DNA from: a virus | Strand: one strand, 5' to 3' | DNA: 40,050 nt | IMG/VR virus record: IMGVR_UViG_3300027747_002750 | Span: 1-40,050 of that record | Shown here: piece after piece, positions 24,791 through 39,213 of the stretch | Layout: every line of letters starts with the position of its first letter | Position numbering within the stretch: position 1 is the first letter of the stretch | Made by a program: the position numbers and the translations under genes | The notes under the pieces: generated by a model | Databases searched by the model: none | Seen by the model: the letters and a program-made list of their open reading frames with translations, nothing else | What the model was told of the DNA's origin: nothing

Positions 24791-24826
24791 AAACTTTAAT
24801 TAATTTGTTGGTTTTATCTTTAATGA

Positions 24827-24834
24827 TATTTATA
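24827..24834 (+). promoter_or_regulatory. TATTTATA element, 4 bases before a start
   Basis: Ends 4 bases before the ATG at 24839. It heads the run 24839-29298, in which successive genes overlap or lie within 5 bases of each other. Confidence 0.55.
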
Positions 24835-24838
24835 AAAA

Positions 24839-25273
24839 ATGAAAAACATTATTCGAAAAATATTAAAAGAAAATGAGGAAAATAATCTTGAACAAAGATT
24901 TAGAAAATCAATGCAAAAATTCCAATATATTTTTGAAAGTAGTCTTTCTTCTGATGTTGATTCTGTAGAAATAAGTGAAATCCAATTTAACCCTAAATAC
25001 CCTTATATTGAAGGAAAACTTACGGTAAAATCATACTTTGAAGACCATGATTTTGGCGCTCTTGGAAGACGAATTGATCTTTTAGAAGACGAAGTTTATG
25101 AAATTAATAGACAATTTACTTTTACTAAAAAAGGTGGTTTAATTAAAAGAGGACCTGACAATGATTGGACATTGAGTTGCATGCCAATTGGTATGAAATG
25201 GCGGACTGATGGTGATGATCCATTTATGATAACATTAGAATTTATAATATTTCAAGACGAATACGACGCATAA
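24839..25273 (+). CDS. Leader-tagged small protein (144 aa)
   Basis: Leader MKNIIRKILKEN with a possible cut after Glu11. The rest is a single alpha/beta domain: a helix (QRFRKSMQKFQYIFESSL), strands around VEISEIQFNP and IEGKLTVKSYF, a second helix and a final strand region LEFIIFQDEYDA. Its strand pattern recalls the C-terminal module of the 595-residue protein. It overlaps the next gene by one base. Function unknown. Confidence 0.65.
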   Translation: MKNIIRKILKENEENNLEQRFRKSMQKFQYIFESSLSSDVDSVEISEIQFNPKYPYIEGKLTVKSYFEDHDFGALGRRIDLLEDEVYEINRQFTFTKKGGLIKRGPDNDWTLSCMPIGMKWRTDGDDPFMITLEFIIFQDEYDA

Positions 25274-25596
25274 TGAAAGAGTTAATTAGACATATATTAA
25301 AAGAAGAAACTGAGGAAATTGACCAAAATGTTTTGAATTTTCTTTTGAGAAGATATAAAATAAAAGAATTGGATTTAGGTGAAAATTTAAAATTTAAAAA
25401 CTTATACTTAGAGATCGGAGGTGATTATTATCAACTATCTACTTGGAGAAGTAAAAAAAGTAATATTTTGGAAATTATAAATATTTTAAATGATTATGAG
25501 ATTATTGAACCTATTAATAATTTTTCAAATGAGAATGATCCATATAGACAAAAAATAGTTAGAACTATTAAAAGGTTTTTAGATAAAGTAATGTGA
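25273..25596 (+). CDS. Leader-tagged small protein (107 aa)
   Basis: Leader MKELIRHILKEETEE, nearly identical at the DNA level to the leaders of the genes at 25596 and 26674. The remaining 90 residues include NFLLRRYKIKELDLGENLKF and are mixed alpha/beta. Translationally coupled on both sides (TAATG and TGATG). No family recognised. Confidence 0.65.
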   Translation: MKELIRHILKEETEEIDQNVLNFLLRRYKIKELDLGENLKFKNLYLEIGGDYYQLSTWRSKKSNILEIINILNDYEIIEPINNFSNENDPYRQKIVRTIKRFLDKVM

Positions 25597-26033
25597 TGAA
25601 AGATTTGATTAGACAAATATTAAAAGAAGAAACGGATGATTCTGAAACTTTAAACAAAGGAATTAATCTTGCTATAAAAATTCTAAAAAAATCTTATCCA
25701 TTTATCATTGGATGGGAATTAGGTATTTATGGTAATTTTTCAATTGATATTAATATTATTTGTGATATAGAAAAACTAAAAGAATTTTATAATAGTGACT
25801 TAAGCGACTATCACAAAAGAAACAAAAATGAATTATCTAACGAAGATTATCCATATGCTGTTTCAATATTAAATATTAGAAATGAAATGACAAGTGACGA
25901 AATGTTTGAAGATTATAAAAAACTAAAACAAGAATTAAATGACATTTATGAAATGCTTCCTGAGCATTTAACGGCCAAAGATGAATTTAACGATATAAAA
26001 ACATTAGATCCAGATAGATTTAAATTTAGATGA
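25596..26033 (+). CDS. Leader-tagged small protein (145 aa)
   Basis: I start at the ATG at 25596, inside a TGATG junction, giving leader MKDLIRQILKEETDD. The body has a helix (LAIKILKKSYPFIIG), two strands (WELGIYGNFSIDINIICD), then acidic helices. That helix-strand-strand-helix order matches the small module repeated in the 874-residue protein. It overlaps the next gene by ATGA. Function unknown. Confidence 0.65.
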   Translation: MKDLIRQILKEETDDSETLNKGINLAIKILKKSYPFIIGWELGIYGNFSIDINIICDIEKLKEFYNSDLSDYHKRNKNELSNEDYPYAVSILNIRNEMTSDEMFEDYKKLKQELNDIYEMLPEHLTAKDEFNDIKTLDPDRFKFR

Positions 26034-26668
26034 GAAATTTAATTAAATTAATATTAGAAGATGAGGTTACTAGAAAATATTCTAAACCTACACCAAAGGT
26101 AGAACAACTTGTTTATAGATGGTTAAACGACTATTTTGATGGTGTAAAAATGTATTACAGTAAATCTTGGGAAACAAGACATGACTTTGAATTTTGTAAA
26201 AATGGTAGAGAAATAATGAGTCTTATATTATTTTTTGAAGATAATAGTGATATATATGACGACAGAAGAAAAACTGAAGAAAGAGATTTTGATTCAGGTT
26301 CACTTTATATTCCAAATGACATATTTAAAGAGTTGATGTCTGATATTCCTGTAAGAGCAAGTTACTTAAAATACCTTTTTGAAGAATGGTTTGAAGACAC
26401 TTATTTAGGTGAAATTCAAAGTAAGATGAGTAGAAATGACATTTATATTTCTGAATTTAAAATAGATAATAGAGACGCTCAAATTTGTGTTCCACCAATG
26501 ACAAAACCTGATGATGTGACTGAGGAGGATATGATAGAACATATTCTTAAAACCACACTTTTCAAAAGAGATGATATAATGAAACAAGAAGAAGAAAGTC
26601 CAGGATGGATTGAAAAAACATATTTAGAAAAACTTCGTAATGATGAATATGATAGATTAAGAGGATAA
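26030..26668 (+). CDS. Leader-tagged protein (212 aa), paralogue of 39597-40007
   Basis: Leader variant MRNLIKLILEDE. Around residue 90-125 it reads GSLYIPNDIFKELMSDIP and then YLKYLFEEWFED, which matches KSLYIREDIYRTIMDFIP and IIDWFNKRYDQ of the protein at 39597. The two therefore share a domain although they lie 13 kb apart. The C-terminal 80 residues here (after the shared part) are extra, acidic, and include VPPMTKPDDVTEEDM. No known family. It is followed after 5 bases by the large polyprotein candidate. Confidence 0.65.
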   Translation: MRNLIKLILEDEVTRKYSKPTPKVEQLVYRWLNDYFDGVKMYYSKSWETRHDFEFCKNGREIMSLILFFEDNSDIYDDRRKTEERDFDSGSLYIPNDIFKELMSDIPVRASYLKYLFEEWFEDTYLGEIQSKMSRNDIYISEFKIDNRDAQICVPPMTKPDDVTEEDMIEHILKTTLFKRDDIMKQEEESPGWIEKTYLEKLRNDEYDRLRG

Positions 26669-26673
26669 TAAAA

Positions 26674-29298
26674 ATGAGAGAACTGATTAGACATATCTTA
26701 AAAGAAAATAGACTTCAACATGAGTTGAAACAAGTTATCGAAGATAATGGTATCTTTGATGCTATTGATATGGTTGGAGGGTTAGAAAACCTTAAAAGAA
26801 TATTCAAAGGAGATCCCGAATTTAGTTCTTTATTTGAGAAACTAACAGGAATAGTTACTTTTTATTATGTAGGATATTTGGAATTTCCTTTAGAGTATGA
26901 AATAATTGGTAGACGTAGTAATGTTCATAACACTAACCACTGGCCCGAAATAAATGTTTTATATGATGAAAACAAATTAACATCCGAAGAAAACGAAGTT
27001 TTCAAAGAGATGATTAAGTATTTAGTGGATGAGGCACAACATAGTGGGTTCGAAAGTAAATTTAATGATGGTAGGATATTCAATACAAATTACCTTACGG
27101 TTGCAGAAATAAATGGTCAAGACATTAATTCGATAGATTATGGTTATGATTTTAGTAACGAGGACTTTGAAGTTAAAAACATCCATAATAAACTTTATGG
27201 TGAGTCTGAAAGTTTAAACGAAAGTGAAAGGGATGTAAAAAAACTTTTCAAAATAGTAAAAATGATTATGGAAGATATGATACTTCCTGAATATAATCAT
27301 CTTATTTGTTCTTATGAAATAACATTAAACAAAGTTTTTAATATACCTGAAGTTACAGTTTTATTTATTGGTGGTTACGGAACAAAACTTTGGCCCATGA
27401 CACAAGGTATAAGACAAATGTATTTAGATGTTTTAGAGGACATTTCAAAAGAAATTGCAAACTATACTGGAGTAGTAATTGGTGTTCGTGGAGAACAAAC
27501 ACCAAAGTGTGACGATAAAGAAAATATTTATCTAAGAGAAAGTAAAACAGAAGACAAAGAATATAGTCCAGCAGGAAAAGAAATAACACCAAAAGAAAAA
27601 GTTTATCATCAATCAAATCCTATGTTTAGAAATAAAATTGAAGAACAGGGATTAAAAGTTCGTGCTGGTGAATGTTATAAAATATATGCAGGATATGGTG
27701 AAAAATGTATTCCTGCCATATTTGCAACCAACTCATCAAACAAAAGGGCTTGGTTTGATTCAACATATGACGACGATGTTTGGGAGATTGACACAACAAA
27801 AATACCAAATGTTAAGTGGTATAAAGATAGACATTATGAATCAAGGTCAAAACATATAGTAACCTTTCAAGACATACCTAAAGAGGCAATCAAACTTATC
27901 TATGAAGGTTCAGGTAAAGATACAAATTTCTTTAACTACGATGATAAACTGATGGAATCAGAAAATAAATCAGAAGACAAAAAACTTAAGTTAGTAAAAG
28001 AAATGATTTATAGTCTTTTCGATGAGGTTGAATTTATTGAAGTTGATACAAATTATGAAGGAAAACCACTTATCAAAATCTATCATGATGTGGAAGATAC
28101 TGCGGCAAACTACGATAATTGGTTTTCACATAGAATACAAGATGAGATTAAAGAAATGACAGGAGATGGTATTATTTTATCTCCATGGTGGGCAGCAGGT
28201 TGGGATTGGAAATATAAGAATGCAGACTTTTTTATTGATGTTCAAAAAATAGACTATGACGATGAAGGTAATGTTATAAACGAATCTGACGAATCTAAAC
28301 AAGAAAGAAAGTTTAATAAGTTAGTTCAAAAAATAGAAGATTATTTAAACTCCAACGAATATCCAAGTGTTAAAAAATTTACTGTGTATTATGATGACAC
28401 ACACGATGATGTTATTGTTAATATATTCTTTAATGTTCAAGACTCGATTAAATTGGGTGGAGGAATTAACTCTGTTATTAAAAGAGTTGGGAAACAAGTT
28501 ATGGAAGACTTGGAGGTATTTCCTATGGACTTCAAATATTACATACATTTCGATAGAGATATAAATGAATCAGAAGAAAAACAACCAAAGTATTTGAATA
28601 TTATTAAAGATCTTGTAGAACCATTCAAAGACGAAGATTGTGTTTGTGATATTAGAGTTTTGTATAATGAAGAAGATGACATGTATCTTATTGATTTAAA
28701 TATGGGAACGGAAGAATTGAATGAGAAGTTTTTTGCTGTTATTGGTATGAGTCATTATGTTAGTAAATTAAGACGAGATATTAAAGAAACAATCAAAGAT
28801 TATCTCCCAATAGATAATTTTTATGTTGGTTCATATGCATCACCAAATTGTAAGTGGAAACCTCTAAATGAATCTTCAATTAAAGAAAAATCTTTAATCA
28901 AACTATTAGAGAAAGACGGACTATATGACTTTATTGAAATGACAGGATTAGACTTCAATCAAGTTAGATCATTGTTAAAACATATAGATAATCCCAAAGA
29001 ACTATTAAAACAATATATTAGAGAATTTGTTTTAGAACATGGTGGCGGATATGATGAAAATTATGGTTCTATTTTTAATGTTCAAATACCATTAAGTGAT
29101 ACCAAATATGTTGAGGACATATTAGTACATGATGCTGATTCTATTGCCATTGAAATGTGGGAATATCATCTTGATGAATATGGGCATAGAGAACAAAAAG
29201 ACCAATATCTAACAACAATTAACAACCTAACTAATGACGAGTTACTATCAATCATTTCTTGGATGATGGAAACAATTCAAAATGGTTATCGGGATTAG
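26674..29298 (+). CDS. Leader-tagged multidomain protein, probable polyprotein (874 aa)
   Basis: Leader MRELIRHILKEN (site after Glu11). Six internal [L/I]-x-Glu-Ser sites follow, after Glu183, 289, 428, 537, 632 and 733, spaced about 95-140 residues apart. They fall between modules: 184-289, 429-537, 538-632 and 633-733 look like copies of one helix-strand-strand-helix-strand module. Residues 290-428 are different and contain KVYHQSNPMFRNKIEEQGL, then IFATN, WEIDTTKI and IPKEAIKLIYEG, an ADP-ribosyltransferase-like layout similar to part of the 595-residue protein. The N-terminal NGIFDAIDMVGGLENLKRI is echoed by DGLYDFIEMTGLDFNQVRS near residue 745. Cleavage at these sites would release seven products. 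Processing and function are inferred. Confidence 0.7.
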   Translation: MRELIRHILKENRLQHELKQVIEDNGIFDAIDMVGGLENLKRIFKGDPEFSSLFEKLTGIVTFYYVGYLEFPLEYEIIGRRSNVHNTNHWPEINVLYDENKLTSEENEVFKEMIKYLVDEAQHSGFESKFNDGRIFNTNYLTVAEINGQDINSIDYGYDFSNEDFEVKNIHNKLYGESESLNESERDVKKLFKIVKMIMEDMILPEYNHLICSYEITLNKVFNIPEVTVLFIGGYGTKLWPMTQGIRQMYLDVLEDISKEIANYTGVVIGVRGEQTPKCDDKENIYLRESKTEDKEYSPAGKEITPKEKVYHQSNPMFRNKIEEQGLKVRAGECYKIYAGYGEKCIPAIFATNSSNKRAWFDSTYDDDVWEIDTTKIPNVKWYKDRHYESRSKHIVTFQDIPKEAIKLIYEGSGKDTNFFNYDDKLMESENKSEDKKLKLVKEMIYSLFDEVEFIEVDTNYEGKPLIKIYHDVEDTAANYDNWFSHRIQDEIKEMTGDGIILSPWWAAGWDWKYKNADFFIDVQKIDYDDEGNVINESDESKQERKFNKLVQKIEDYLNSNEYPSVKKFTVYYDDTHDDVIVNIFFNVQDSIKLGGGINSVIKRVGKQVMEDLEVFPMDFKYYIHFDRDINESEEKQPKYLNIIKDLVEPFKDEDCVCDIRVLYNEEDDMYLIDLNMGTEELNEKFFAVIGMSHYVSKLRRDIKETIKDYLPIDNFYVGSYASPNCKWKPLNESSIKEKSLIKLLEKDGLYDFIEMTGLDFNQVRSLLKHIDNPKELLKQYIREFVLEHGGGYDENYGSIFNVQIPLSDTKYVEDILVHDADSIAIEMWEYHLDEYGHREQKDQYLTTINNLTNDELLSIISWMMETIQNGYRD

Positions 29299-29312
29299 TC
29301 AAATAATTTTAT

Positions 29313-29320
29313 TATATTTG
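29313..29320 (+). promoter_or_regulatory. -7 element TATATTTG
   Basis: TATATTTG ends 6 bases before the ATG at 29327. No clear TTTG at the ideal distance. Confidence 0.4.
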
Positions 29321-29326
29321 CCATTA

Positions 29327-29599
29327 ATGGTAAAAGACATTTCAAAAGTAATAGAACAATATGTATATAATCATCTTTCACATAGAGATGATATCGAGGT
29401 CCAAGTGACTAACTCACCAAAAAGATATGAGGTTCGTATTGTGGTTGATTTAAAACCAACTGATGGATTATGGGCGACAATCAACAAAGGTATTGATAGG
29501 CACGATCTTATGAATGGTTTAAGAGACTACCTGAATTTAGATTGGGACAACTGTATGATTAGTTATGAATATAACGAATATGAACTTAAAACACCATAA
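29327..29599 (+). CDS. Small alpha/beta module protein (90 aa)
   Basis: The ATG at 29327 follows a -7 element by 6 bases, so I prefer it to the upstream in-frame start inside the preceding gene. VKDISKVIEQYVYNHLSHRD is a leader-like first helix without a clear x-Glu end. It is followed by strands IEVQVTNSPKRYEVRIVVDL, a helix and a final strand. This is a stand-alone version of the module seen repeatedly in the 874-residue protein. Its message likely ends at the terminator at 29607. Confidence 0.65.
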   Translation: MVKDISKVIEQYVYNHLSHRDDIEVQVTNSPKRYEVRIVVDLKPTDGLWATINKGIDRHDLMNGLRDYLNLDWDNCMISYEYNEYELKTP

Positions 29600-29606
29600 A
29601 ATAATT

Positions 29607-29640
29607 TGATCCTCCACTTGTGAAATTGGGGGATTTTTTT
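29607..29640 (+). terminator. Rho-independent terminator
   Basis: ATCCTCCA (29609-29616) pairs with TGGGGGAT (29627-29634) and a T run follows. The start of this element (AATAATTTGATCCTCC) recurs at 32961-32976. Confidence 0.8.
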
Positions 29641-29648
29641 TATCTTAG
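29641..29648 (+). promoter_or_regulatory. -7-like element TATCTTAG
   Basis: TATCTTAG, one base off the Bacteroidota -7 consensus, ends 5 bases before the ATG at 29654 and directly follows the terminator. Confidence 0.35.
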
Positions 29649-29653
29649 CGTTA

Positions 29654-29893
29654 ATGAAAGATTTATCCAAATATATATCAAGTCTTCTCGAAGATACAGA
29701 TTTAGGTGCTGATTACAGAGTCTATTACAACGGAAAAATTTATGTTATTGACATATACCTTAGAGATCTTAGATATGAAATTGACTTTGTCAAAAAAATT
29801 ATTAAAGAATTGGTATCAAGTATAATGAATACTTACTTCTTAAACGATAGTATAAAATATCTTATTAATGTCCGAATTGAATATATATCATGA
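29654..29893 (+). CDS. Leader-tagged small module protein (79 aa)
   Basis: MKDLSKYISSLLEDT is a variant leader with L-L-E before Asp. It is followed by YRVYYNGKIYVIDIYL (two strands), a helix and a last strand, the same small module as its neighbours. It overlaps the next gene by ATGA. Function unknown. Confidence 0.65.
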   Translation: MKDLSKYISSLLEDTDLGADYRVYYNGKIYVIDIYLRDLRYEIDFVKKIIKELVSSIMNTYFLNDSIKYLINVRIEYIS

Positions 29894-30192
29894 AAGACTT
29901 ATCCAAATATATTGAATCCCTTATTGATGAGGTTAACCTCCCGTTAGACATTACCTTACAGGAAGATGGGTCGTATCGTATTGTTGTTACCCAAGACCTC
30001 AAAGAAAGCACGGTAAGATACACAAATGCTGCGTGGAATAATGAAAATGATATTAGATGGATTAGAGTTCAATTAAAGAGATATCTCCCAAATCTTAAAA
30101 TCGAATTAATGGTGGGGTATATCAATTACCCTAAGATCTACACTACACCATTAGTTAAAGAATATAAATACGGAGCATGGAAAATAAATTAG
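29890..30192 (+). CDS. Leader-tagged small module protein (100 aa)
   Basis: MKDLSKYIESLIDEVNLPLD is almost the same leader as in the previous gene, and the body (LDITLQEDGSYRIVVTQDL, a helix, then KIELMVGYINY) is a further copy of the module. This indicates tandem duplication of the pair. Its end overlaps the next gene by 16 bases. Confidence 0.65.
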   Translation: MKDLSKYIESLIDEVNLPLDITLQEDGSYRIVVTQDLKESTVRYTNAAWNNENDIRWIRVQLKRYLPNLKIELMVGYINYPKIYTTPLVKEYKYGAWKIN

Positions 30193-30434
30193 ATAAACTA
30201 ATATTAGACTATTTCAAACTGATCATTCCACATGATTATGATAATTTGAAATTCAGATATAGTGATAAGAAACATATTATATTTATAACTGTTTGTTGTG
30301 ATACAGCCCAAAAGGCACATAGGTTTTTTGGAAGAAAAGGTAGAGATTTAAATATACTAAAACAATTAGAGGAAGATATGTCAAATATGTTCCCATTTGA
30401 TTTTTATATCAACTGCGAATTTAAAGTTTCTTAG
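30177..30434 (+). CDS. Small module protein (85 aa)
   Basis: MENKLDKLILDYFKLIIP is a first helix without a clear cleavage motif. It is followed by LKFRYSDKKHIIFITVCCD, a helix with HRFFGRKGRDLNIL, and FDFYINCEFKV. The same helix-strand-strand-helix-strand order as its two upstream neighbours suggests a third tandem relative. Function unknown. Confidence 0.6.
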   Translation: MENKLDKLILDYFKLIIPHDYDNLKFRYSDKKHIIFITVCCDTAQKAHRFFGRKGRDLNILKQLEEDMSNMFPFDFYINCEFKVS

Positions 30435-30435
30435 A

Positions 30436-30443
30436 TATTTATT
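30436..30443 (+). promoter_or_regulatory. TATTTATT element, 4 bases before a start
   Basis: Ends 4 bases before the ATG at 30448, two bases after the preceding stop. Confidence 0.55.
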
Positions 30444-30447
30444 TGAT

Positions 30448-32235
30448 ATGAATCTACAAGAACAAATATCAAGAATACAAGAAATGATGGGGGTAATCAA
30501 AGAAGAATTACACAATACATCGTCTGAAGACATAAAGACAATTCAATCTGAACTAATAGATATGTTGGGTAATTCCAATACAGATAATGGTGATAGAGTT
30601 GAATTTGTTAATAGAGTATTTGGTTCTGATTCTAGTTTTGACATAATTGTTGACAATTTAGATCAAGAAATTTTAGATAAGATAAATGAGTTCATGGATG
30701 AGAAAGGTTGGTTTCCTGCCAATATTGGGTTTTCAGGTATGAAAGGACGTATATATTCACAAAATTTTAAAGATTATTTAGGTGAGGACGATGTTCAAAT
30801 TACTTACGAGGCACATTCGCCTGATGAGATCAAAATTACTCAAACCAAAGCTTATCATGTAACACCTGACATTTTTTTTAATAAAATAAATCAAGAAGGT
30901 CTTATACCTAAATCTGAAAGTAAATTATCTAACCATCCTGATAGGGTTTATTTATATCGAAATCAAGACAAACACAAAGATATAGTTTGGACATTATGGA
31001 ATTCTTTAAGTAAAGAAAGACAAGAGCAGATAAAAAATTACTATGTGTTAGAAATCGATTTGACACAAATACCAAATTATAATTTTTTCAAAGATCCTCA
31101 AGCAATGGCAGACTATGGTGCTATCTATACTGATAAACCGATTCCAAAATCTGCGATCAGGGTTATTGATAAGATAGATACTAAGGGTATTGAAACTGTT
31201 GATAAAGATGAGATGTCAAAAGAAGAAGAAAAAATCGCTAGTAATGAATTAAAACAAAGAGAGAAAGAAAGAATAGACCGTGAAAAAGAACAAGAAAAGT
31301 CTGATTCAGAATATGCCGAATATAGTAAAAAAGTTAATGATCTTCCTGACAATTTAAAAAACATAGATATAGATGATTTATTAAGTTTGGAAGAACAAAT
31401 AAAAAAAGTAATAAAAAAAGTAATTAATGAAAGTGACCCAAAGGTCGGAACTGGTAAAAAACCAAAGGGTTCTGAAAGAAGATTATATACAGATGAAAAT
31501 CCAAGTGATACGGTGTCCGTTAAGTTTAAAACAAAACAAGATGTTATTGATACTCTAAACAAAGATAGTTTTAAATCCAAATCACACGCCAGACAATCAC
31601 AAATTATTAATCTTATACATCAGAGATTAAGAGTGGCGTTAGAAAGAGCAAAAGACCCTGAAGTAAAGAAAAGATTAAGAACCGCATTTGAATACATTGA
31701 GTCTAAAAAAGAAGCATCCAAGAGAAAGACTCAAGAAATGAAAGAAGAAGAACTAACAGAAAAGTGTTGGAAAGGATATACTCAAAAAGGTATGAAGACA
31801 ATGTTTGGTAAGAGATACCCCAATTGTGTTAAAAAAAAAAGTAAAACATTAAAAGAATCCAAAACTTCAAAAGAAGATTATTCTGATATAGAAACTGTGA
31901 TAAATAAAATTATACCAAAGAGTTTTTCTTGGTTTAAAGAAATAGAAATAGATAATATTAGTTATTCTGAATTTTCCAACACATTAACAATTTACGGAGA
32001 ATTAAAAGTAGATGAAGAGTGGGGAGCAAAACAATGGAGAGAATATTATGAATATAAACCTTTCCCTTCAAATAGTGGATGGGAAGAAGAAGATCCTGTT
32101 AGACTAGGTGATATCGTAGGAAAAGGAGAACTTGATGATCTAAACGACCAAATGGAAGTTATAGTATCATCAGTGGGTAATTACTCAATTATAGATACTA
32201 TAAGATTAGGACAATTAAAGTTATATTTTGTATGA
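30448..32235 (+). CDS. Leader-tagged ADP-ribosyltransferase-like polyprotein candidate (595 aa)
   Basis: Start at 30448, set by the TATTTATT element; leader MNLQEQISRIQEMMGVIKEE (site after Glu19). About residues 130-255 read KAYHVTPDIFFNKINQEGLI, then DRVYLYRNQD, YVLEIDLTQIPN and AIYTDKPIPKSAIRVID, an ADP-ribosyltransferase-like order (H-x-T near the start, GL-x-P, then I-P-x-x-A-I). A charged linker ends VINE-S (Glu328). Next comes a basic region with RRLYTDENPSDTVSVKFKTK and CWKGYTQKGMKTMFGKRYPN, ending LKE-S (Glu470), then a C-terminal alpha/beta module. T4 Alt is a known packaged ADP-ribosyltransferase, so the parallel is attractive but unproven. It overlaps the next gene by ATGA. Confidence 0.65.
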   Translation: MNLQEQISRIQEMMGVIKEELHNTSSEDIKTIQSELIDMLGNSNTDNGDRVEFVNRVFGSDSSFDIIVDNLDQEILDKINEFMDEKGWFPANIGFSGMKGRIYSQNFKDYLGEDDVQITYEAHSPDEIKITQTKAYHVTPDIFFNKINQEGLIPKSESKLSNHPDRVYLYRNQDKHKDIVWTLWNSLSKERQEQIKNYYVLEIDLTQIPNYNFFKDPQAMADYGAIYTDKPIPKSAIRVIDKIDTKGIETVDKDEMSKEEEKIASNELKQREKERIDREKEQEKSDSEYAEYSKKVNDLPDNLKNIDIDDLLSLEEQIKKVIKKVINESDPKVGTGKKPKGSERRLYTDENPSDTVSVKFKTKQDVIDTLNKDSFKSKSHARQSQIINLIHQRLRVALERAKDPEVKKRLRTAFEYIESKKEASKRKTQEMKEEELTEKCWKGYTQKGMKTMFGKRYPNCVKKKSKTLKESKTSKEDYSDIETVINKIIPKSFSWFKEIEIDNISYSEFSNTLTIYGELKVDEEWGAKQWREYYEYKPFPSNSGWEEEDPVRLGDIVGKGELDDLNDQMEVIVSSVGNYSIIDTIRLGQLKLYFV

Positions 32236-32927
32236 CAAGTATCAGACAACATATCAAAAGAGTTTTAAACGAAGAAAAAAACAGTCTTAAAAACGACCCT
32301 GTAAAGCATTATTATTACAATTATTTAAACGAAGAACCAATAGAATTTAAAGGAATTTATTTAGTTCCAAAATGGACAGGAGAAAGAATAGAATGGGAAG
32401 TTGACAACCCAAATGATTATTCATATGGAAAAGCTTTATTAAATGAAGTTTTATATGATGAGTTTGAATCATTTTGTGAAATAACTAACACAAACTATCT
32501 CAAATACCGTCATAATTCTTCATGGATGGAAAACATTCCAAATGGTTGTTATATATCAAAACAAGATAGAAAAGAAATTAATAGACATGGAAAACAAATT
32601 CAACAAATTAAATTTACAGGAGAAGATAGTCGTTATATATTTAACTTTGACTATGAAAGAACTTCAATAACTTGTTTTTCTATTGAGATTGAAATTTATG
32701 TTTATGGTAATATAATAAATTTAATAAAAACTAATCTTAATGGTGGAGGAACATATCCTGTGAACCCAAGACATTTTATTTCTGATATGACAGACTCTGA
32801 TTACGACCTTTGGAAAGAAGAGTTATTTAATATTTTGAAAGATATATATGGTGTTTTAACACAAAACCCAAGAATCTACGATAACCGTATGGACTATTTA
32901 GATTTAGGACTTCAACAAACACCTTGA
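32232..32927 (+). CDS. Leader-tagged protein (231 aa), distant paralogue of 18789-19451
   Basis: MTSIRQHIKRVLNEEKN is a leader with L-N-E before Glu. Residues 37-120 share the P-N-x-x-S-Y turn, acidic helix, W-containing strand and the I-x-F-T helix end with the protein at 18789. Later IFNFDYERTSITCFSIEIEI gives strongly alternating strands. It is coupled to the 595-residue gene by ATGA and is followed by the degenerate cassette at 32932-33005. Function unknown. Confidence 0.65.
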   Translation: MTSIRQHIKRVLNEEKNSLKNDPVKHYYYNYLNEEPIEFKGIYLVPKWTGERIEWEVDNPNDYSYGKALLNEVLYDEFESFCEITNTNYLKYRHNSSWMENIPNGCYISKQDRKEINRHGKQIQQIKFTGEDSRYIFNFDYERTSITCFSIEIEIYVYGNIINLIKTNLNGGGTYPVNPRHFISDMTDSDYDLWKEELFNILKDIYGVLTQNPRIYDNRMDYLDLGLQQTP

Positions 32928-32931
32928 TAAA

Positions 32932-32994
32932 TATTTATTAGATATGAACCTACAAGAACAAATAATTTGATCCTCCGTTTGTAAAGATGGGGAA
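32932..32994 (+). pseudogene. Degenerate cassette: promoter element, seven leader codons, terminator
   Basis: TATTTATT (32932-32939) is followed after 4 bases by an ATG at 32944 that opens ATGAACCTACAAGAACAAATA, the same 21 bases that start the intact gene at 33006. The frame then ends at TGA 32968-32970 (product MNLQEQII). A terminator-like GATCCTCC...GGGGA follows at 32969-32992, closely related to the one at 29607, and the intact gene's own TATTTATT begins at 32995. It looks like a cassette whose gene body has been deleted. Confidence 0.6.
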
Positions 32995-33002
32995 TATTTA
33001 TT
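32995..33002 (+). promoter_or_regulatory. TATTTATT element, 3 bases before a start
   Basis: Ends 3 bases before the ATG at 33006 and is fused directly to the GGGGA arm of the terminator-like sequence before it. Confidence 0.55.
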
Positions 33003-33005
33003 AAC

Positions 33006-33335
33006 ATGAACCTACAAGAACAAATAAGAACAATATTAAGGGAAGAGGTGGGACTTAGCCCAAGATTCCTTAGAAGAGTTCCTATGGAGAAGTTAGAGGA
33101 GTCTTTTGGTCACGCATTAAAACAAGCAACAAAAAAATATTATAGATATCTACCTGTGTTAGATGATGATTACAAATTACATTTTTTTACAAAGGAAGTT
33201 GTTGAGTTATTATTAAATTCAGTATCACATTTAATGTACCCAACAATAAAGGGATCGTGGTATGATGAAGAGTTTTCAAATGTAAAAAAATACTTTAAAG
33301 ATAGAATAACAGAATGGTGGGAAACCTTAGATTGA
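33006..33335 (+). CDS. Leader-tagged small protein (109 aa)
   Basis: Leader MNLQEQIRTILREE, sharing its first seven codons with the degenerate copy upstream and its first seven residues with the 595-residue protein. The body is helical and aromatic (ATKKYYRYLPVLDDDYKLHF, then EFSNVKKYFKDRITEWWETL). It is the last gene before the long non-coding stretch. Function unknown. Confidence 0.65.
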   Translation: MNLQEQIRTILREEVGLSPRFLRRVPMEKLEESFGHALKQATKKYYRYLPVLDDDYKLHFFTKEVVELLLNSVSHLMYPTIKGSWYDEEFSNVKKYFKDRITEWWETLD

Positions 33336-33481
33336 TTAAGAGTATACGATCAATTCATTCGGTTCATAGTCCTCCACTACGTTACACTCCGTTTCAGAAT
33401 TCACCTCATAAATTTATCCTACACTCTTACATTTCTATATAGGATATGTCCCATTAATTACCACATATTCTAAACAGTATT

Positions 33482-33514
33482 GTAATGGTCATTACTGTAA
33501 TGTATATTACATTA
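33482..33514. promoter_or_regulatory. Nested GTAATG/CATTAC palindromes
   Basis: GTAATG at 33482 and again at 33497, CATTAC at 33490, and TACATTA at 33508 form two adjacent inverted repeats with loops of 2 and 3 bases. This is the look of a cooperative protein-binding site. Confidence 0.5.
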
Positions 33515-33569
33515 ACACGATGAGGTTCTCATGTATAAATAATTCATTTTTCTATACATTATAATATTG

Positions 33570-33667
33570 TACCCGATAGGGTACAAAATAATACCTTTAG
33601 TAAACAATCATACCCGATAGGGTACAAAATAATACCTTTAGTAAACAATCATACCCAATAGGGTACA
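33570..33667. repeat. 41-bp direct repeats with dyad TACCC-GATA-GGGTA
   Basis: Copies begin at 33570, 33611 and 33652; the first two are identical over 41 bp (TACCCGATAGGGTACAAAAT and onward) and the third covers the first 16 bases with one change (CAATA for CGATA). Each core is an inverted repeat TACCC/GGGTA. The layout resembles replication or partition iterons. Confidence 0.8.
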
Positions 33668-33700
33668 ATTCCCCCATTCATTACAAGACCCCATTTATAA

Positions 33701-33728
33701 GTGTCGGAGACCGACACGCAGTGGAGTG
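33701..33728 (-). repeat. Dispersed element copy 1 (CACTCCACT-CGTGTCGG)
   Basis: Perfect hairpin GTGTCGG-AGA-CCGACAC followed by GCAGTGGAGTG. Read on the minus strand it is CACTCCACTGCGTGTCGGTC, which recurs on the plus strand at 34579 and 37656. Confidence 0.65.
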
Positions 33729-34236
33729 ACAGAAATAAGATAGACATTTAGTGATCAGATGAGTAAACATTTTAGATAAGTGTACCACTTTCTACCACCA
33801 AATTTAGTAGATCATTTAGTATATGGATGAGGTTCATTTATTGATATAACCTTCGGTTAATTTATTAAAATGAAAGAACTAAACATAGGTTTACATGTCT
33901 ATAAAGTGTGTCTATATTTACGGGGTCAAATGTTAAGTTGGTCACCTAAAGGGTCGTTGAAGTTGTATATAATATACCATTCTAACGTCCTAAAGGACTG
34001 TCCACGCACATTGTTCTATAACTACACCTTTTTAGCTGGAAAATATAACTACCTAAAAAAGTGGTCCTGTAGGGGTCAAGAGAGGGGTTTTTTTTACTCT
34101 TACCATAGCAACAGGACCAATAGTGGTGGTAGAAAGTGGTAATGAATTGTGGGAGTTTGTGGTATAAAAGTGGGGGAGGGGATTGTGTTGTGAAGCGACT
34201 GACACTGACATTTTGACATAATCAAGTTTTTTAACA

Positions 34237-34248
34237 TATTTATTTATT
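34237..34248 (+). promoter_or_regulatory. Overlapping TATTTATT elements
   Basis: TATTTATTTATT holds two overlapping copies of the octamer. The second ends 14 bases before the ATG at 34263. Confidence 0.5.
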
Positions 34249-34262
34249 AACAATTCCCCCTT

Positions 34263-34571
34263 ATGATACAACTAATAGACAAATTCGAAACAACTGTAAG
34301 TGAAAATAATGGTTCTATAATGGTCAATTATAGACATGACACATTGACGGGTTACTGTGAATATAGAATTATTGAGGTAAATAACGCCTCCCCAATGGTC
34401 GGGACTGTTAAAAGATTCAAACAAAAAGCTTGGTTACTAATCAACACAGATATGGGGGATGTAATAGAGTATATACATTCCAACTCCCCACTGTCAGATA
34501 AAGATTTACAAGATGTGAATAAGTTAATTAGAGACCATTCACTCTCACGAGTTCAAAGTCTCGCTCGTTGA
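34263..34571 (+). CDS. Hypothetical protein (102 aa)
   Basis: Begins MIQLIDKFETTVSENNGSIM, which may be a divergent leader (V-S-E before Asn), then strands (YCEYRIIEVNN), a basic stretch KRFKQKAWLLINTD and a helical C-terminus. Codon use is less AT-biased than in the genes to the left. Its TATTTATT element supports it being real. It stands alone between non-coding sequence on the left and a leftward small gene on the right. Function unknown. Confidence 0.55.
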   Translation: MIQLIDKFETTVSENNGSIMVNYRHDTLTGYCEYRIIEVNNASPMVGTVKRFKQKAWLLINTDMGDVIEYIHSNSPLSDKDLQDVNKLIRDHSLSRVQSLAR

Positions 34572-34578
34572 TTGAGAT

Positions 34579-34606
34579 CACTCCACTGGCGTGTCGGTCT
34601 TTGACA
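34579..34606 (+). repeat. Dispersed element copy 2
   Basis: CACTCCACTGGCGTGTCGGT followed by a short loop and GACAC, so GTGTC/GACAC can pair. It lies 8 bases after the stop of the gene at 34263 and 9 bases beyond the stop of the convergent small gene, so it may act as a shared terminator or processing site. Confidence 0.6.
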
Positions 34607-34614
34607 CTCACTAC

Positions 34615-34779
34615 TCAGGGTTCAAAATCTTGATCGGTGATGATATGTTTTTTAATCCAACTTGATACTTTAAGGTTGGGGAAACGTTTCACCAATATAA
34701 TGGATATAATAATAAACGAAAATATGGGGACAAGACATATGGCCACAATTAGCCCCAAGTAATAAAGTATATCAGACAT
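34615..34779 (-). CDS. Small single-span membrane protein (54 aa)
   Basis: ATG at 34779, TGA at 34615-34617. Residues 4-30 are a hydrophobic helix (ILYYLGLIVAICLVPIFSFI and on to the second IIL), followed by a basic stretch KRFPNLK and a short C-terminal tail. A TATTTATT element ends 3 bases before the start on the minus strand, the same spacing as for the tagged genes. This supports a genuine leftward gene although it is too short to stand out on length. The topology would allow a holin, antiholin or membrane anchor; no family recognised. Confidence 0.6.
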   Translation of the reverse strand: MSDILYYLGLIVAICLVPIFSFIIISIILVKRFPNLKVSSWIKKHIITDQDFEP

Positions 34780-34782
34780 AAT

Positions 34783-34790
34783 AATAAATA
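34783..34790 (-). promoter_or_regulatory. TATTTATT element (minus strand)
   Basis: Ends 3 bases before the ATG of the small membrane protein. Confidence 0.5.
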
Positions 34791-34820
34791 TAAGAATAAT
34801 ATTTTATATAATCAAATTAA

Positions 34821-34901
34821 AGATTGGGGAATCTTTATATATAATATAAAGCAGGTCGGAGTCTACACTCCAAGAGGTGTTGCTCCCCCAGCCCGACTCT
34901 G
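34821..34901 (-). ncRNA. Candidate structured RNA
   Basis: Read on the minus strand, CAG(A)GTCGG (34901-34893) pairs with CCGACCTG (34859-34852), an 8-bp stem with one bulged A. Inside it are two small hairpins, GCT-GGGGG-AGC and ACA(C)CTC-TTG-GAGTGT, giving a three-way junction of about 50 bases. Next come two perfect hairpins, CTTTATAT-TAT-ATATAAAG and AAAGATT-CCCC-AATCTTT. A well-formed leftward promoter lies just upstream (34920-34951). There is no open frame. It could be a small regulatory RNA or the structured leader of the membrane-protein gene. Confidence 0.45.
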
Positions 34902-34919
34902 ATCCCTCAACCGTCAATA

Positions 34920-34951
34920 CAAAGATAAGAAATATATTTGACATAAACAAA
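34920..34951 (-). promoter_or_regulatory. Leftward promoter copy 1, TTTG-N20-TATCTTTG
   Basis: On the minus strand TTTG (34951-34948) and TATCTTTG (34927-34920) are exactly 20 bases apart. The surrounding 50 bases are repeated at 35174-35225. Confidence 0.7.
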
Positions 34952-35174
34952 TAAATCATTGATCTTTTTTAAACTATTAATATATTTATAGTAGAACTTT
35001 ATTTTCCCCACAGTTGGGAATTAGTTAATCAATGATCCAAGTGACATGTAAAGATTAAGATGAGGTTTAAAACAAATAAGACATACGAACTTCTAACGAG
35101 GGGTTTTTTAATCTAATCTTCTTCTAATAGGTGGGGAATTTTTTTATGCTTTATAGTTTTATAAAGCACCAACA

Positions 35175-35206
35175 CAAAGATAAGGAATATATTTGACACC
35201 CCCAAA
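35175..35206 (-). promoter_or_regulatory. Leftward promoter copy 2, TTTG-N20-TATCTTTG
   Basis: On the minus strand TTTG (35206-35203) and TATCTTTG (35182-35175), again exactly 20 bases apart. The transcript would open with the perfect hairpin GCTTTATA-AAAC-TATAAAGC (35167-35148). No leftward open frame follows. Confidence 0.7.
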
Positions 35207-35359
35207 TAAATAATAATCTTTTTATTTATTAACAAACTACTCCCTCCCTTCTATCTTGGCATGGGGGCCTATGTCGTTATTAGCCCCCTCCCCCCTACCG
35301 TATTCCCCCCATATATGACTTTTTGACAGGGGAAAGGGGGATTCAATCCCCTTTATCAA

Positions 35360-35404
35360 GTATTCGTAAAAAAAATTCTAGAAAAATTTTTGGGAAAAAA
35401 TTGG
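35360..35404. repeat. A-tract/T-tract intergenic element, copy 1 of 3
   Basis: TATTCGTAAAAAAAATTCTA, then GAAAAATTTTTGGGAAAAAA. It resembles 36241-36272 and 37710-37743, each placed shortly before a gene. Such phased A/T tracts are usually bent. Confidence 0.5.
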
Positions 35405-35434
35405 AACTATTCCCCTTTTTCTATATAGGGGGTA

Positions 35435-35442
35435 TATTTATT
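35435..35442 (+). promoter_or_regulatory. TATTTATT element
   Basis: Ends 15 bases before the ATG at 35458. Confidence 0.5.
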
Positions 35443-35457
35443 ACTAAAGAATATATT

Positions 35458-36165
35458 ATGAAATTTACTATAACTGAAGAAGAAAGAAGATCCATTAGAG
35501 GTATGTACTTAATGGAACAAGTAACACCCATGAGTATAGGTGGGGGAACACCGTCACCTCAAGCGGATGTTAAATACAAAGATTATAATGGGTTTTATTC
35601 GATTGCCTATTCTCCTGAAAGTAACATTAGTTCTGTAATCAATTCTTACAATGGTGGAAAATCCGAATCAAAGAGATACGACTTTTCGGGGAATGACTTA
35701 TCACTTAACCCCCAAACTCAATATATCGCATTTAGTTATTGGTTTGATAATAAATCAGGTAACGCTATGAAGGTTACTGTTAATGCAAAAACTTCAGACG
35801 GTAAGACAGTAACAAATTCTTGGGCTAATAGAGGTCCTGATTCTGTGGATACCAAATATTTTGGGAGATTCAATATTGGACCATTACCTGACAATTCAAC
35901 TATTACAGTTTCTATTGCAGGTGACGGATTTAATTCATTAACAATCACTACAAAACAAACTCCTGATCCATCGGTAAATTGTGATGCAGAATGGAAAGTT
36001 GTGTATGAAAAATTAGAGGATGCCGCAAATGAAAATACTAGTGTTGACATAAGACCATATTATTGTAATAAAGACCAAACCAATTACATTAAAGGAATAT
36101 ATCCTGATATCGATAACTCTAAATTAATATGTTTAAAAAAGAAAATAAAAACACAGTATTGTTAG
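35458..36165 (+). CDS. Leader-tagged beta-sandwich protein (235 aa)
   Basis: The ATG at 35458 gives the leader MKFTITEEERRSIRGMYLMEQ with L-M-E before Gln21; upstream in-frame codons are A-tract intergenic sequence. Residues 40-165 are strand-rich, with NPQTQYIAFSYWFDN, MKVTVNAKTSDGKTVTNSW and LPDNSTITVSIAGDGFNSLT, the look of an immunoglobulin-like or carbohydrate-binding beta-sandwich. The C-terminal 60 residues hold four cysteines. It is less charged than most neighbours. A terminator follows. It might be a virion-borne binding protein, but nothing specific is recognised. Confidence 0.65.
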   Translation: MKFTITEEERRSIRGMYLMEQVTPMSIGGGTPSPQADVKYKDYNGFYSIAYSPESNISSVINSYNGGKSESKRYDFSGNDLSLNPQTQYIAFSYWFDNKSGNAMKVTVNAKTSDGKTVTNSWANRGPDSVDTKYFGRFNIGPLPDNSTITVSIAGDGFNSLTITTKQTPDPSVNCDAEWKVVYEKLEDAANENTSVDIRPYYCNKDQTNYIKGIYPDIDNSKLICLKKKIKTQYC

Positions 36166-36171
36166 AATTTT

Positions 36172-36201
36172 AAATCCCCTCCATTAAAGTGGGGTTTTTT
36201 G
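36172..36201 (+). terminator. Rho-independent terminator
   Basis: ATCCCC pairs with GGGG followed by TTTTTT, 7 bases after the stop at 36165. Confidence 0.75.
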
Positions 36202-36240
36202 TTTTCCATAAACATGACCCCCTTTTCAAATAGACCCCTA

Positions 36241-36272
36241 ATACTAAAAAAAAAATTTTTAAAAAAAATTGA
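36241..36272. repeat. A-tract/T-tract intergenic element, copy 2 of 3
   Basis: ATACTAAAAAAAAAATTTTT, then AAAAAAAATTGA. It matches 37710-37743 at both ends, and a GACCCCC run lies about 25 bases upstream in both places. Confidence 0.5.
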
Positions 36273-36297
36273 GTATTTAATATAAACTATTATTACT

Positions 36298-36726
36298 ATG
36301 AAAAAATTAAATTTTAATGAAATGTTAAACAAGTGTTGGGAAACTGCTCTTGGTATGACAAAAATGGCAAAACTTTATCAAGGATCATCACCAAATGATT
36401 TAAGTTTTATTCATTGTATCTTTAGAGGAAACGATGAGTATGCAACAATTATGGTTAATTGTACAAGTCACGGGAAAGTATCAGTTCAAACTGTTGATAG
36501 TCCTTATTTGGATGACTTGGTTATTCACCCCCCACTTCAAATGACACAAGAAGAATCTGAACAATGTTTAATCAATGCTGGATACACTGGTCGTTGGTCC
36601 GTTGTGTTGTTAAGAGCTCCACTTTATTCGGTAGTATATCCACCACTATATATTTATACCGTGGAGAATGTTGGGTACATTGCGGTGGATTCGACGGATG
36701 GAACAAATGTGTTTCAACTTTATTAA
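36298..36726 (+). CDS. Hypothetical protein (142 aa)
   Basis: MKKLNFNEMLNKCWETALGM does not follow the usual leader pattern. The body is alpha/beta with ATIMVNCTSHGKVSVQTVDS and a C-terminal YTVENVGYIAVDSTDG; the strand order could suit a small binding or enzyme domain, but no motif is diagnostic. Four cysteines are spread along it. It has its own terminator and no clear TATTTATW element (closest is TATTTAAT, about 16 bases upstream). Function unknown. Confidence 0.6.
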   Translation: MKKLNFNEMLNKCWETALGMTKMAKLYQGSSPNDLSFIHCIFRGNDEYATIMVNCTSHGKVSVQTVDSPYLDDLVIHPPLQMTQEESEQCLINAGYTGRWSVVLLRAPLYSVVYPPLYIYTVENVGYIAVDSTDGTNVFQLY

Positions 36727-36748
36727 TAATAAACCAATTTGTTTTTAT

Positions 36749-36777
36749 AACCTCATCTTCAACAGGTGGGGTTTTTT
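36749..36777 (+). terminator. Rho-independent terminator
   Basis: AACCTCATC pairs with GGTGGGGTT (9 bp including two G-U pairs) and is followed by TTTTT. Confidence 0.8.
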
Positions 36778-36788
36778 GTTTTATCATA

Positions 36789-36796
36789 TATTTATT
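36789..36796 (+). promoter_or_regulatory. TATTTATT element, 5 bases before a start
   Basis: Ends 5 bases before the ATG at 36802, 12 bases after the preceding terminator. Confidence 0.55.
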
Positions 36797-36801
36797 ATTA
36801 T

Positions 36802-37653
36802 ATGAAAATCATTATAACTGAAGATCAGTACGAACAATTAACTAACATCGTTAAACGAGTGATTAGTGAAAATAACTCCATGACAGAAAAAAAATATAAA
36901 ACATATTCAAAACTTTTAAATAAACTAACAGAAAAATTTGATTGGGTATCTAAAATTGATGTTAAATTAAGTTCTACCGCCGACGCAGGTGGGTGGAGAG
37001 GTGAAGAGAGTAAACCACTATTAATTGTATCGGTTTATTTTAAAAACTATCAAAAAATTCGAATGGTGACACAGTTTGAGTTATTTGATGAAATAAGCTT
37101 TATTCACGATATGTTTTTTCCTCATCTAACCGGTGACCCTCTTATATATTCAGATAATGTTACCGCATATTTTTCAGTTAAATCAGTTTTTCCAAACGGT
37201 AAAACGGACTCCTTCCCAATCCAAATTGTTTCGGGGGATTATGACGCTGTAAGTCAAATTAGTGAATCACAATTAACTAACATCGTTAAACGAGTGATTA
37301 GTGAAAATGACTCTATGTTAGAAAAAAACAAAAAGTTTTTAAAAAACAAGTTGGGTATTGATTTTACAAATGGTATTCAACAAGTAACCTCAACATATGA
37401 TGTACCAATGGAATTTGATTATGGTATTAGTTCTGATTCAATTAGACGTTATTTAAACAATTTTGGACCTATGTATCTTTTTGAACTTGATGGTATAAAA
37501 TATCTTTATCAAGACAGGGGGTTTGAATTTTTTATTGATGAGAATGGATTCGACTATGTTGATGGTGAAATCCCCGAGATGCTTGGAATCGATGAAATGG
37601 GTTTAAGGTTTTCGAATATTATTGATCTCTATTTCAAAGAAGAGGATTTCTAA
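36802..37653 (+). CDS. Fusion of two leader-tagged proteins (283 aa)
   Basis: Leader MKIIITEDQYEQLTNIVKRV ending I-S-E (Glu23). Residues 30-140 form an alpha/beta module (KLLNKLTEKFDWVSKIDVKL, then strands LLIVSVYFKNY). At residues 156-168 the leader core reappears as SQLTNIVKRVISE, preceded by ISE-S (Glu155). At the DNA level 39 bases are identical between the two copies. Residues 170-283 are a second, unrelated domain with FDYGISSDSIRRYLNNFG and LDGIKYLYQDRGFEFFIDEN. Cuts at 23, 155 and 168 would give two separate products. The domains themselves are not recognised. Confidence 0.7.
   Translation: MKIIITEDQYEQLTNIVKRVISENNSMTEKKYKTYSKLLNKLTEKFDWVSKIDVKLSSTADAGGWRGEESKPLLIVSVYFKNYQKIRMVTQFELFDEISFIHDMFFPHLTGDPLIYSDNVTAYFSVKSVFPNGKTDSFPIQIVSGDYDAVSQISESQLTNIVKRVISENDSMLEKNKKFLKNKLGIDFTNGIQQVTSTYDVPMEFDYGISSDSIRRYLNNFGPMYLFELDGIKYLYQDRGFEFFIDENGFDYVDGEIPEMLGIDEMGLRFSNIIDLYFKEEDF
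36835..36873 (+). repeat. 39-bp exact repeat, copy 1 (leader core)
   Basis: Begins CAATTAACTAACATCGTTAA and is identical to 37270-37308. It encodes QLTNIVKRVISEN in both places. Confidence 0.9.
37270..37308 (+). repeat. 39-bp exact repeat, copy 2 (internal leader)
   Basis: Identical to 36835-36873 and in the same reading frame, 435 bases downstream. It marks the junction of two fused genes. Confidence 0.9.
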
Positions 37654-37655
37654 AA

Positions 37656-37684
37656 CACTCCACTTCGTGTCGGTCTAAAACACG
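37656..37684 (+). repeat. Dispersed element copy 3
   Basis: CACTCCACTTCGTGTCGGTC followed by TAAAACACGA. It starts 3 bases after the stop of the fused gene; CGTGT can pair with the downstream ACACG. Confidence 0.6.
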
Positions 37685-37709
37685 ACCCCCCCATTTCAAT
37701 TATAGTCAA

Positions 37710-37743
37710 ATACTGAAAAAAAAATTTCCAGAAAAAATTTGAG
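37710..37743. repeat. A-tract/T-tract intergenic element, copy 3 of 3
   Basis: ATACTGAAAAAAAAATTTCC, then AGAAAAAATTTGAG. Its last TTTG doubles as the -33 element of the promoter at 37738. Confidence 0.5.
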
Positions 37744-37769
37744 AAAACTGGGAACTTATATTATCTTTG
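37738..37769 (+). promoter_or_regulatory. Bacteroidota-type promoter, TTTG-N20-TATCTTTG
   Basis: TTTG at 37738-37741 and TATCTTTG at 37762-37769, 20 bases apart. The ATG at 37774 follows 4 bases later. Confidence 0.8.
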
Positions 37770-37773
37770 TTAT

Positions 37774-38001
37774 ATGAAAAATCTTATCACATATTATTGT
37801 CGTTTTCTATATGACATTTTTTGGGGTTTAATCTTTATCAACCTTTCAATTAAATCATTCAACGATCAATCCATTTTTATGTTTATTTTGTTTACCACCG
37901 TTTTTTGTTGGGGGGCAAGAGATCTTATTAATAAACACATTAACTTTATGAAGTATTATCCCCATTTTGAACATAAGTGGGATGACTTAAGTTTTTCATA
38001 A
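37774..38001 (+). CDS. Small membrane protein, two predicted spans (75 aa)
   Basis: Two hydrophobic segments, about residues 9-26 (CRFLYDIFWGLIFINLSI) and 33-50 (QSIFMFILFTTVFCWGA), are joined by a short polar loop, and a basic/aromatic C-terminal tail follows. It has a strong host-type promoter rather than the TATTTATW element, so its timing probably differs from its tagged neighbours. Size and topology would suit a class II holin, superinfection-exclusion protein or membrane-modifying protein; none is proven. Confidence 0.65.
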   Translation: MKNLITYYCRFLYDIFWGLIFINLSIKSFNDQSIFMFILFTTVFCWGARDLINKHINFMKYYPHFEHKWDDLSFS

Positions 38002-38027
38002 AAGAGGGGGTTTTTTGTTTTATAATA

Positions 38028-38035
38028 TATTTATT
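38028..38035 (+). promoter_or_regulatory. TATTTATT element, 3 bases before a start
   Basis: Ends 3 bases before the ATG at 38039 and follows a GGGGG-T6 tract that resembles half a terminator. Confidence 0.55.
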
Positions 38036-38038
38036 AAT

Positions 38039-38686: not shown

Positions 38687-38722
38687 TTTTCTTCCTTTTT
38701 GTGGGGGGCCGGAAACCAAAAC

Positions 38723-38768
38723 CCGACTTCGTCGGAATTTTTTCGACCGAACCCTTCGGGTTTTATTT
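38723..38768 (+). terminator. Two tandem terminators
   Basis: CCGAC-TTC-GTCGG (38723-38735) then AATTTTTT, followed by AACCC-TTC-GGGTT (38750-38762) then TTATTTT. These tight TTC-loop hairpins differ from the CCCC/GGGG type used elsewhere. Confidence 0.75.
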
Positions 38769-38856
38769 TGTTTTATATAATAACTTATTTAATGACTCAC
38801 ACAAAAAAAGGTTTTTTGTTTTTTTTTTGAATGATGGTTTTTTTTAATTTTCGATA

Positions 38857-39209: not shown

Positions 39210-39213
39210 GATC

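What the first reader, a model, noticed from the sequence alone, without database searches (positions are those of the whole stretch)
30448..32235. Second polyprotein candidate with an ADP-ribosyltransferase-like domain, parallel to T4 Alt
Sites after Glu19, Glu328 (VINE-S) and Glu470 (LKE-S) split the protein into an ADP-ribosyltransferase-like part, a basic middle with CWKGYTQKGMKTMFGKRYPN, and an alpha/beta module. The Y-H-V-T-P ... GLIP ... IPKSAIRVI layout is shared with residues 290-428 of the 874-residue protein. T4 Alt is a packaged ADP-ribosyltransferase injected with the DNA, which makes a functional parallel plausible.
Basis: inference. Interest (0 to 1): 0.7.

Follow-up and report, generated by a model that had tools for sequence, protein, structure and literature searches.

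The report
Packaged Tpt1-like ADP-ribosyltransferase in phage polyprotein
A jumbo-phage gene appears to encode a string of proteins that is loaded into the virus head and cut apart there; one piece folds like an NAD-using enzyme related to the RNA-repair enzyme Tpt1, suggesting that very large phages inject their own kind of ADP-ribosylating enzyme into bacteria.

Summary
ORF 30448-32235 (595 aa) starts with a helix ending in Glu19, like a T4 capsid-targeting sequence; 15 of 57 window genes start this way (0.15 in shuffles). The [LIVM]xE motif alone is not enriched (13 against 13.8). Related phages encode a T4-type prohead protease and gp23 capsid proteins with a matching site.

Residues 20-246 are predicted to fold as an ADP-ribosyltransferase, closest to Tpt1/KptA NAD+ lobes (Z 11.4), above DarT (7.6). 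It is not a Tpt1: the Arg-His-Arg-Arg tetrad does not map and it fails the family cut-off. Relatives lie in jumbo and huge phages, including Lak. Best reading: a head-packaged, protease-released, injected ADP-ribosyltransferase of a clade I could not find described. Packaging, cleavage, activity and target are inferred. The target may be a nucleic-acid phosphate.

The parts
30448..32235 (+). 595-aa polyprotein candidate (P0001)
30448..30504 (+). N-terminal CTS-like helix MNLQEQISRIQEMMGVIKE, predicted cleavage after Glu19
   Evidence: same N-terminus type on unrelated proteins in the window and in the 308-kb relative
30505..30801 (+). Accessory lobe of the ART module (about residues 20-118), mixed alpha/beta, with the conserved GWFP/GYF motif
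   Evidence: a few small alpha/beta folds (S6, PulM) among weak Foldseek rows
30802..31185 (+). ADP-ribosyltransferase-fold domain (about residues 119-246), closest to the Tpt1/KptA NAD+ lobe; invariant H137, G151, K155, R166, Y168, near-invariant D216
31186..31377 (+). Charged linker (residues 247-310), also the C-terminal tail of the ART module in L021
31378..31431 (+). Internal CTS-like helix LLSLEEQIKKVIKKVINE, predicted cleavage after Glu328
   Evidence: hydrophobic-x-Glu at this junction in 41 of 50 contexts
31432..31761 (+). Basic, mostly helical module SDPKVGTGKKPKGSERRLYTDENP... (residues 329-438), predicted cleavage after Glu438
31762..31857 (+). Basic Cys module KCWKGYTQKGMKTMFGKRYPNCVKKK... 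(residues 439-470), predicted cleavage after Glu470
   Evidence: also in cyanophage record OQ504983
31858..32232 (+). C-terminal acidic alpha/beta module (residues 471-595), fused to other N-termini in L004 and L005
   Evidence: model of low confidence
27562..27921 (+). Second, degenerate ART-like domain (about residues 297-416) in the neighbouring 874-aa protein; lacks the HPDRVYL motif

Best explanation
The gene encodes a head-targeted polyprotein. Its N-terminal helix recruits it to the prohead core, as the T4 CTS does. The phage's S77 (gp21-type) prohead protease then cuts after Glu19, Glu328, Glu438 and Glu470, removing the targeting peptide and releasing an ART-fold enzyme (20 to about 328), two basic modules and an acidic alpha/beta module. 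These stay in the head and enter the host with the DNA. There the ART binds NAD+ through its H-x-T motif (H137/T139) and transfers ADP-ribose to a host target. The Tpt1-like pocket, and the lack of a recognisable acceptor glutamate, make a phosphate on nucleic acid somewhat more plausible than a protein side chain. Supported by computation: the fold, the module boundaries, and protease and capsid genes in relatives. Inferred: packaging, cleavage, ejection, catalysis and target.
For: Fold: AF2 pLDDT 79.9, pTM 0.68. The 18 best PDB hits are all Tpt1/KptA (Foldseek E 3e-5 to 1.4e-2). VIA Z 11.4, rmsd 2.5, 98 residues against Tpt1, above DarT 7.6 and DarT1 7.4. Profiles: Tpt1 7kw8 E 0.0021; PHROG_5470 RNA 2'-phosphotransferase matched by 5 of 18 members, best 2.3e-4; hhalign to KptA E 1.5e-4 over the NAD lobe only. 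H, G, K, R and Y invariant in 24 of 24, D in 23 of 24. Packaging: CTS-like N-termini on 15 of 57 window genes and 16 of 375 genes of the 308-kb relative, against 0.15 and 0.55 in shuffles. Processing: Glu in 38 of 48 contexts at the mid-module junction against a 7.5% background, and 35 of 36 contexts for the Cys module; all 26 ART-family proteins examined start right after hydrophobic-x-Glu. S77 protease over the cut-off in 8 of 18 related records, most of the others being fragments; T4-type gp23 in 6 of 7. gp23 proteins of three jumbo relatives carry LINE|A at residue 60, those of Lak and two huge phages an NE| near the N-terminus. T4 Alt itself carries a CTS and is cut by gp21 at both ends (PMC7411985, PMC5694885).
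Against: No virion proteomics and no assay. The window is a 40-kb fragment in which no protease or capsid gene was identified. The 308-kb relative that has the protease shows no match to the ART module. The Tpt1 arginine cage and RNA-lobe residues do not map, so activity may be altered or lost. The sequences compared share ancestry, so the context counts are not independent. In one search the ART sequences were cut at that Glu, so its 24/24 there is by construction; searches show the uncut contexts.
Confidence: 0.6

Rival explanations
1. A packaged RNA-repair enzyme: a divergent Tpt1 that removes 2'-phosphates from tRNAs or RNAs damaged by host nucleases early in infection.
For: Closest structural and profile relatives are Tpt1/KptA. 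Jumbo phages are proposed to use KptA for RNA repair (PMC7824862, PMC9503650).
Against: hhalign aligns the NAD lobe only; the RNA-lobe Arg-His and Arg of the essential tetrad have no counterpart conserved in the family; record G008 has a canonical KptA as well as this family.
Confidence: 0.12
2. A polyvalent injected protein that works uncut: modules were fused and recombine at flexible linkers, and the Glu sites are remnants of former CTS-bearing N-termini.
For: Fusion of formerly separate genes is visible: in L021 the ART module ends in a stop where the window protein continues into the internal CTS. The motif count in the protein is at chance level. Multidomain injected proteins are a known class (PMC5512222).
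Against: Hydrophobic-x-Glu is retained at the Cys-module junction in 35 of 36 contexts and at the mid-module junction in 41 of 50 although the surroundings diverge; a gp21-type protease is encoded by relatives.
Confidence: 0.15
3. The ART fold is a non-catalytic domain that binds NAD, ADP-ribose or nucleic acid.
For: No acceptor glutamate was recognised at the third ART motif, and the Tpt1 arginine cage is not conserved in place.
Against: H137, K155, R166, Y168 and D216 are kept across very divergent phages, which suggests an active site; Tpt1 works with a tetrad of Arg and His, not a glutamate (PMC6333775).
Confidence: 0.13

Closest known systems
Tpt1/KptA RNA 2'-phosphotransferase (PF01885)
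   Same: ART-fold NAD+ lobe, H-x-T motif, best structure and profile match
   Different: No Arg-His-Arg-Arg tetrad, no aligned RNA lobe, below the family cut-off; CTS-like leader and polyprotein context
Phage T4 Alt
   Same: Works alike if the reading is right: head-packaged, CTS-bearing, gp21-processed, injected ADP-ribosyltransferase (PMC7411985, PMC5694885)
   Different: No sequence relationship shown here; Alt is not, to my knowledge, part of a multi-product polyprotein
DarT ssDNA ADP-ribosyltransferase
   Same: ART fold (VIA Z 7.6; DarT1 7.4)
   Different: Clearly weaker match than Tpt1
Polyvalent proteins of phages (Iyer et al. 2017, PMC5512222)
   Same: Multidomain proteins predicted to be packaged and injected; ART domains common among them
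   Different: There, processing is attributed in some cases to the protein's own peptidase domain; here the prohead protease is the candidate and a CTS-like helix recurs inside the chain

Membership tests
ADP-ribosyltransferase superfamily | Split beta-sheet NAD-binding fold | tested here: met
   AF2 model matches Tpt1, DarT and other ARTs; a predicted model, not a solved structure
ADP-ribosyltransferase superfamily | First-motif His/Arg of the NAD pocket | tested here: met
   H137 invariant in 24/24 and aligned with the His of the KptA HGT motif
ADP-ribosyltransferase superfamily | NAD+-dependent transferase activity | not testable with these tools
   needs an assay
Tpt1/KptA (PF01885) | Score above the family cut-off | tested here: not met
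   Members reach at best E 0.11; of seven records searched only G008 has a match, a separate canonical gene
[quoted passage not shown]
   Three of the four lie in the RNA lobe, which does not align; no conserved Arg-His or Arg in the N-terminal lobe of the family; the fourth Arg falls in a gap
Tpt1/KptA (PF01885) | Winged-helix RNA lobe | tested here: inconclusive
   Predicted N-lobe secondary structure is mixed alpha/beta; VIA rows mostly cover model residues 105-228 only
DarT | Structural match better than to other ARTs | tested here: inconclusive
   DarT appears at Z 7.6, below Tpt1 at 11.4; DarT-specific catalytic residues were not mapped
T4-type CTS-bearing packaged protein | Short N-terminal targeting peptide ending in hydrophobic-x-Glu | tested here: met
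T4-type CTS-bearing packaged protein | gp21-type (S77) prohead protease in the phage | tested here: inconclusive
   Present in relatives; the window's own genome is held only as a 40-kb fragment
T4-type CTS-bearing packaged protein | Present and processed in virions | not testable with these tools
   needs virion proteomics
T4 Alt family | Sequence homology to Alt | not tested
   No Alt sequence was compared directly; no Alt family appeared in the Pfam or PHROGs scans

The most novel reading that the evidence does not exclude
An undescribed, apparently virus-restricted clade of Tpt1-like ADP-ribosyltransferases is head-packaged throughout huge and jumbo phages and modifies nucleic-acid phosphates of the host on entry. 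In the lineage of this window it is delivered inside a prohead-processed polyprotein with an internal targeting helix, so that the capsid serves as a processing compartment for several effectors from one gene.
Probability: 0.3. Interest if true: 0.78.

Novelty: new variant of a known kind. Interest (0 to 1): 0.6.

Why it matters
T4 Alt is the classic packaged ADP-ribosyltransferase. This would be a separate ART lineage doing a similar job in the largest known phages, including Lak phages of the gut, with a pocket closest to an enzyme that acts on RNA phosphates. The module-swap pattern also gives a simple way to predict head-packaged effectors in uncultured phages: look for modules that always start just after the capsid-protease motif.

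Tried and rejected
Direct Pfam and PHROG scans of the whole protein gave no family. Motif count as evidence: rejected, equal to shuffles. My first idea that the N-terminal lobe is the Tpt1 winged helix (the 7kw8 hit spans it): not upheld by hhalign or the predicted secondary structure. ART module in the 308-kb relative G001: not found. Structure of residues 329-595: low confidence (pLDDT 55), so no fold search was made with it. Promoter/terminator scan: at chance level. Literature: no description found of this ART clade or of a prohead-processed effector polyprotein, in an open-access library only.

Full report
Observation. Window 30448-32235 (+) is an open frame of 595 codons, identical in a second contig of the same virus and partly conserved in others. 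By number, [LIVM]xE is not enriched (13 found, 13.8 in shuffles), so the sites need other support.

N-terminus. Fifteen of 57 window genes start with one of four related short helices ending in Glu, on otherwise unrelated proteins; shuffles give 0.15. In the 308-kb relative G001 it is 16 of 375 against 0.55. This matches the T4 capsid targeting sequence as described in PMC7411985: 10-20 residues, removed by gp21. The patterns were written after seeing the window, so the G001 count is the fairer test.

Module boundaries. In related contigs the modules of this protein occur in other orders and with other N-termini. The module SDPKVGTGKKP... is nearly invariant, while the sequence before it varies freely (about 3 to 3.6 bits in most columns) except for Glu (38 of 48) and a hydrophobic residue two places before it. 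Of 50 distinct contexts, 41 have hydrophobic-x-Glu at the junction. In several cases the upstream part is a complete N-terminal CTS, for example L008 MIQLKRLLME|SDPK and L007 ...VKRVINE|SDLK. The Cys module has hydrophobic-x-Glu just upstream in 35 of 36 contexts. In L021 the ART module follows ...RRMLKE|E and ends in a stop where the window protein continues with its internal helix. So Glu19, Glu328 and Glu438 are recurrent junctions; Glu470 rests on L004 and L005 alone. These counts come from related sequences and are not independent events.

Protease and capsid. A T4 gp21-type protease (Peptidase_S77) is in G001 (E 1.6e-24), in six of seven other records with the mid module, in Lak (7e-16) and, below the curated cut-off, in the two other huge phages. 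The window is too short to show one. T4-type gp23 is in six of seven records. The gp23 proteins of G001, G014 and one of the two in G013 carry L-I-N-E|A at residue 60, and those of Lak and the two huge phages an N-E| near the N-terminus. The same xNE| motif precedes the ART module in those three (LLNE|G, FLNE|T, SLNE|G). That these capsid proteins are cut there is itself presumed from T4 gp23.

ART module. Relatives were found in viral contigs and, among the phage records, in Lak phages and three uncultured huge-phage records. In all 26 proteins examined, this one included, the module begins directly after hydrophobic-x-Glu, with leaders of different length and sequence (in one search the script scored L021 as negative because I had cut it one residue too late, the site being MLKE|E). 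Lak copies read through in genetic code 15. AF2 on 18 sequences gave pLDDT 79.9. Foldseek and VIA put Tpt1/KptA first; the best Tpt1 Z of 11.4 stands about 3 units above the other ARTs. Profile searches agree. Invariant residues are H137, I147, G151, K155, R166 and Y168, with D216 in 23 of 24. H137/T139 matches the HGT motif that binds the adenosine ribose in Tpt1 (PMC6333775). The tetrad Arg-His-Arg-Arg does not map, and the accessory lobe is predicted as mixed alpha/beta, so this is a Tpt1-like ART and not a Tpt1.

Second ART-like domain. The 874-aa neighbour carries a related domain that lacks the HPDRVYL motif; it may be degenerate or have another role.

Mechanism. Supported by computation: fold, module boundaries, protease and capsid genes in relatives. 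Inferred from T4: recruitment, cutting, ejection. Inferred from the pocket: NAD+ use, and a possible nucleic-acid phosphate acceptor. The target is open.

Novelty. Packaged ARTs are known (T4 Alt) and predicted to be widespread (PMC9503650), and KptA is known in jumbo phages as an RNA-repair enzyme. I found no description of a packaged Tpt1-like clade or of a prohead-processed effector polyprotein in the papers held; subscription papers and preprints could not be searched.

Noticed in passing
20766-40007: A + strand run of genes with CTS-like N-termini on unrelated proteins (AAT-like, DHH-like, many unknown; a lysozyme at 17881 too), apparently a large packaged-protein arsenal.
   Followed up: partly
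36799-37653: Another polyprotein candidate: N-terminal MKIIITEDQYEQLTNIVKRVISE and an internal copy ISESQLTNIVKRVISE at about residues 154-169 of the same protein.
   Followed up: no
26674-29298: 874-aa protein with repeated NE-S type sites between domains and a second ART-like domain.
   Followed up: partly
4931-6031: Thymidylate synthase about 100 residues longer than the Pfam profile, suggesting an insertion.
   Followed up: no
L156 and L157: Both ART-family hits in the prokaryote genome collection lie on one 400-kb contig of a rumen Erysipelotrichaceae MAG, plausibly a mis-binned huge phage.
   Followed up: no
L058 (record G008): A phage fragment encoding a canonical KptA and also a member of the divergent ART family.
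   Followed up: partly
L018: In the 735-kb phage the ART module is followed by FLNE|S and further sequence, so it too may be a polyprotein.
   Followed up: no
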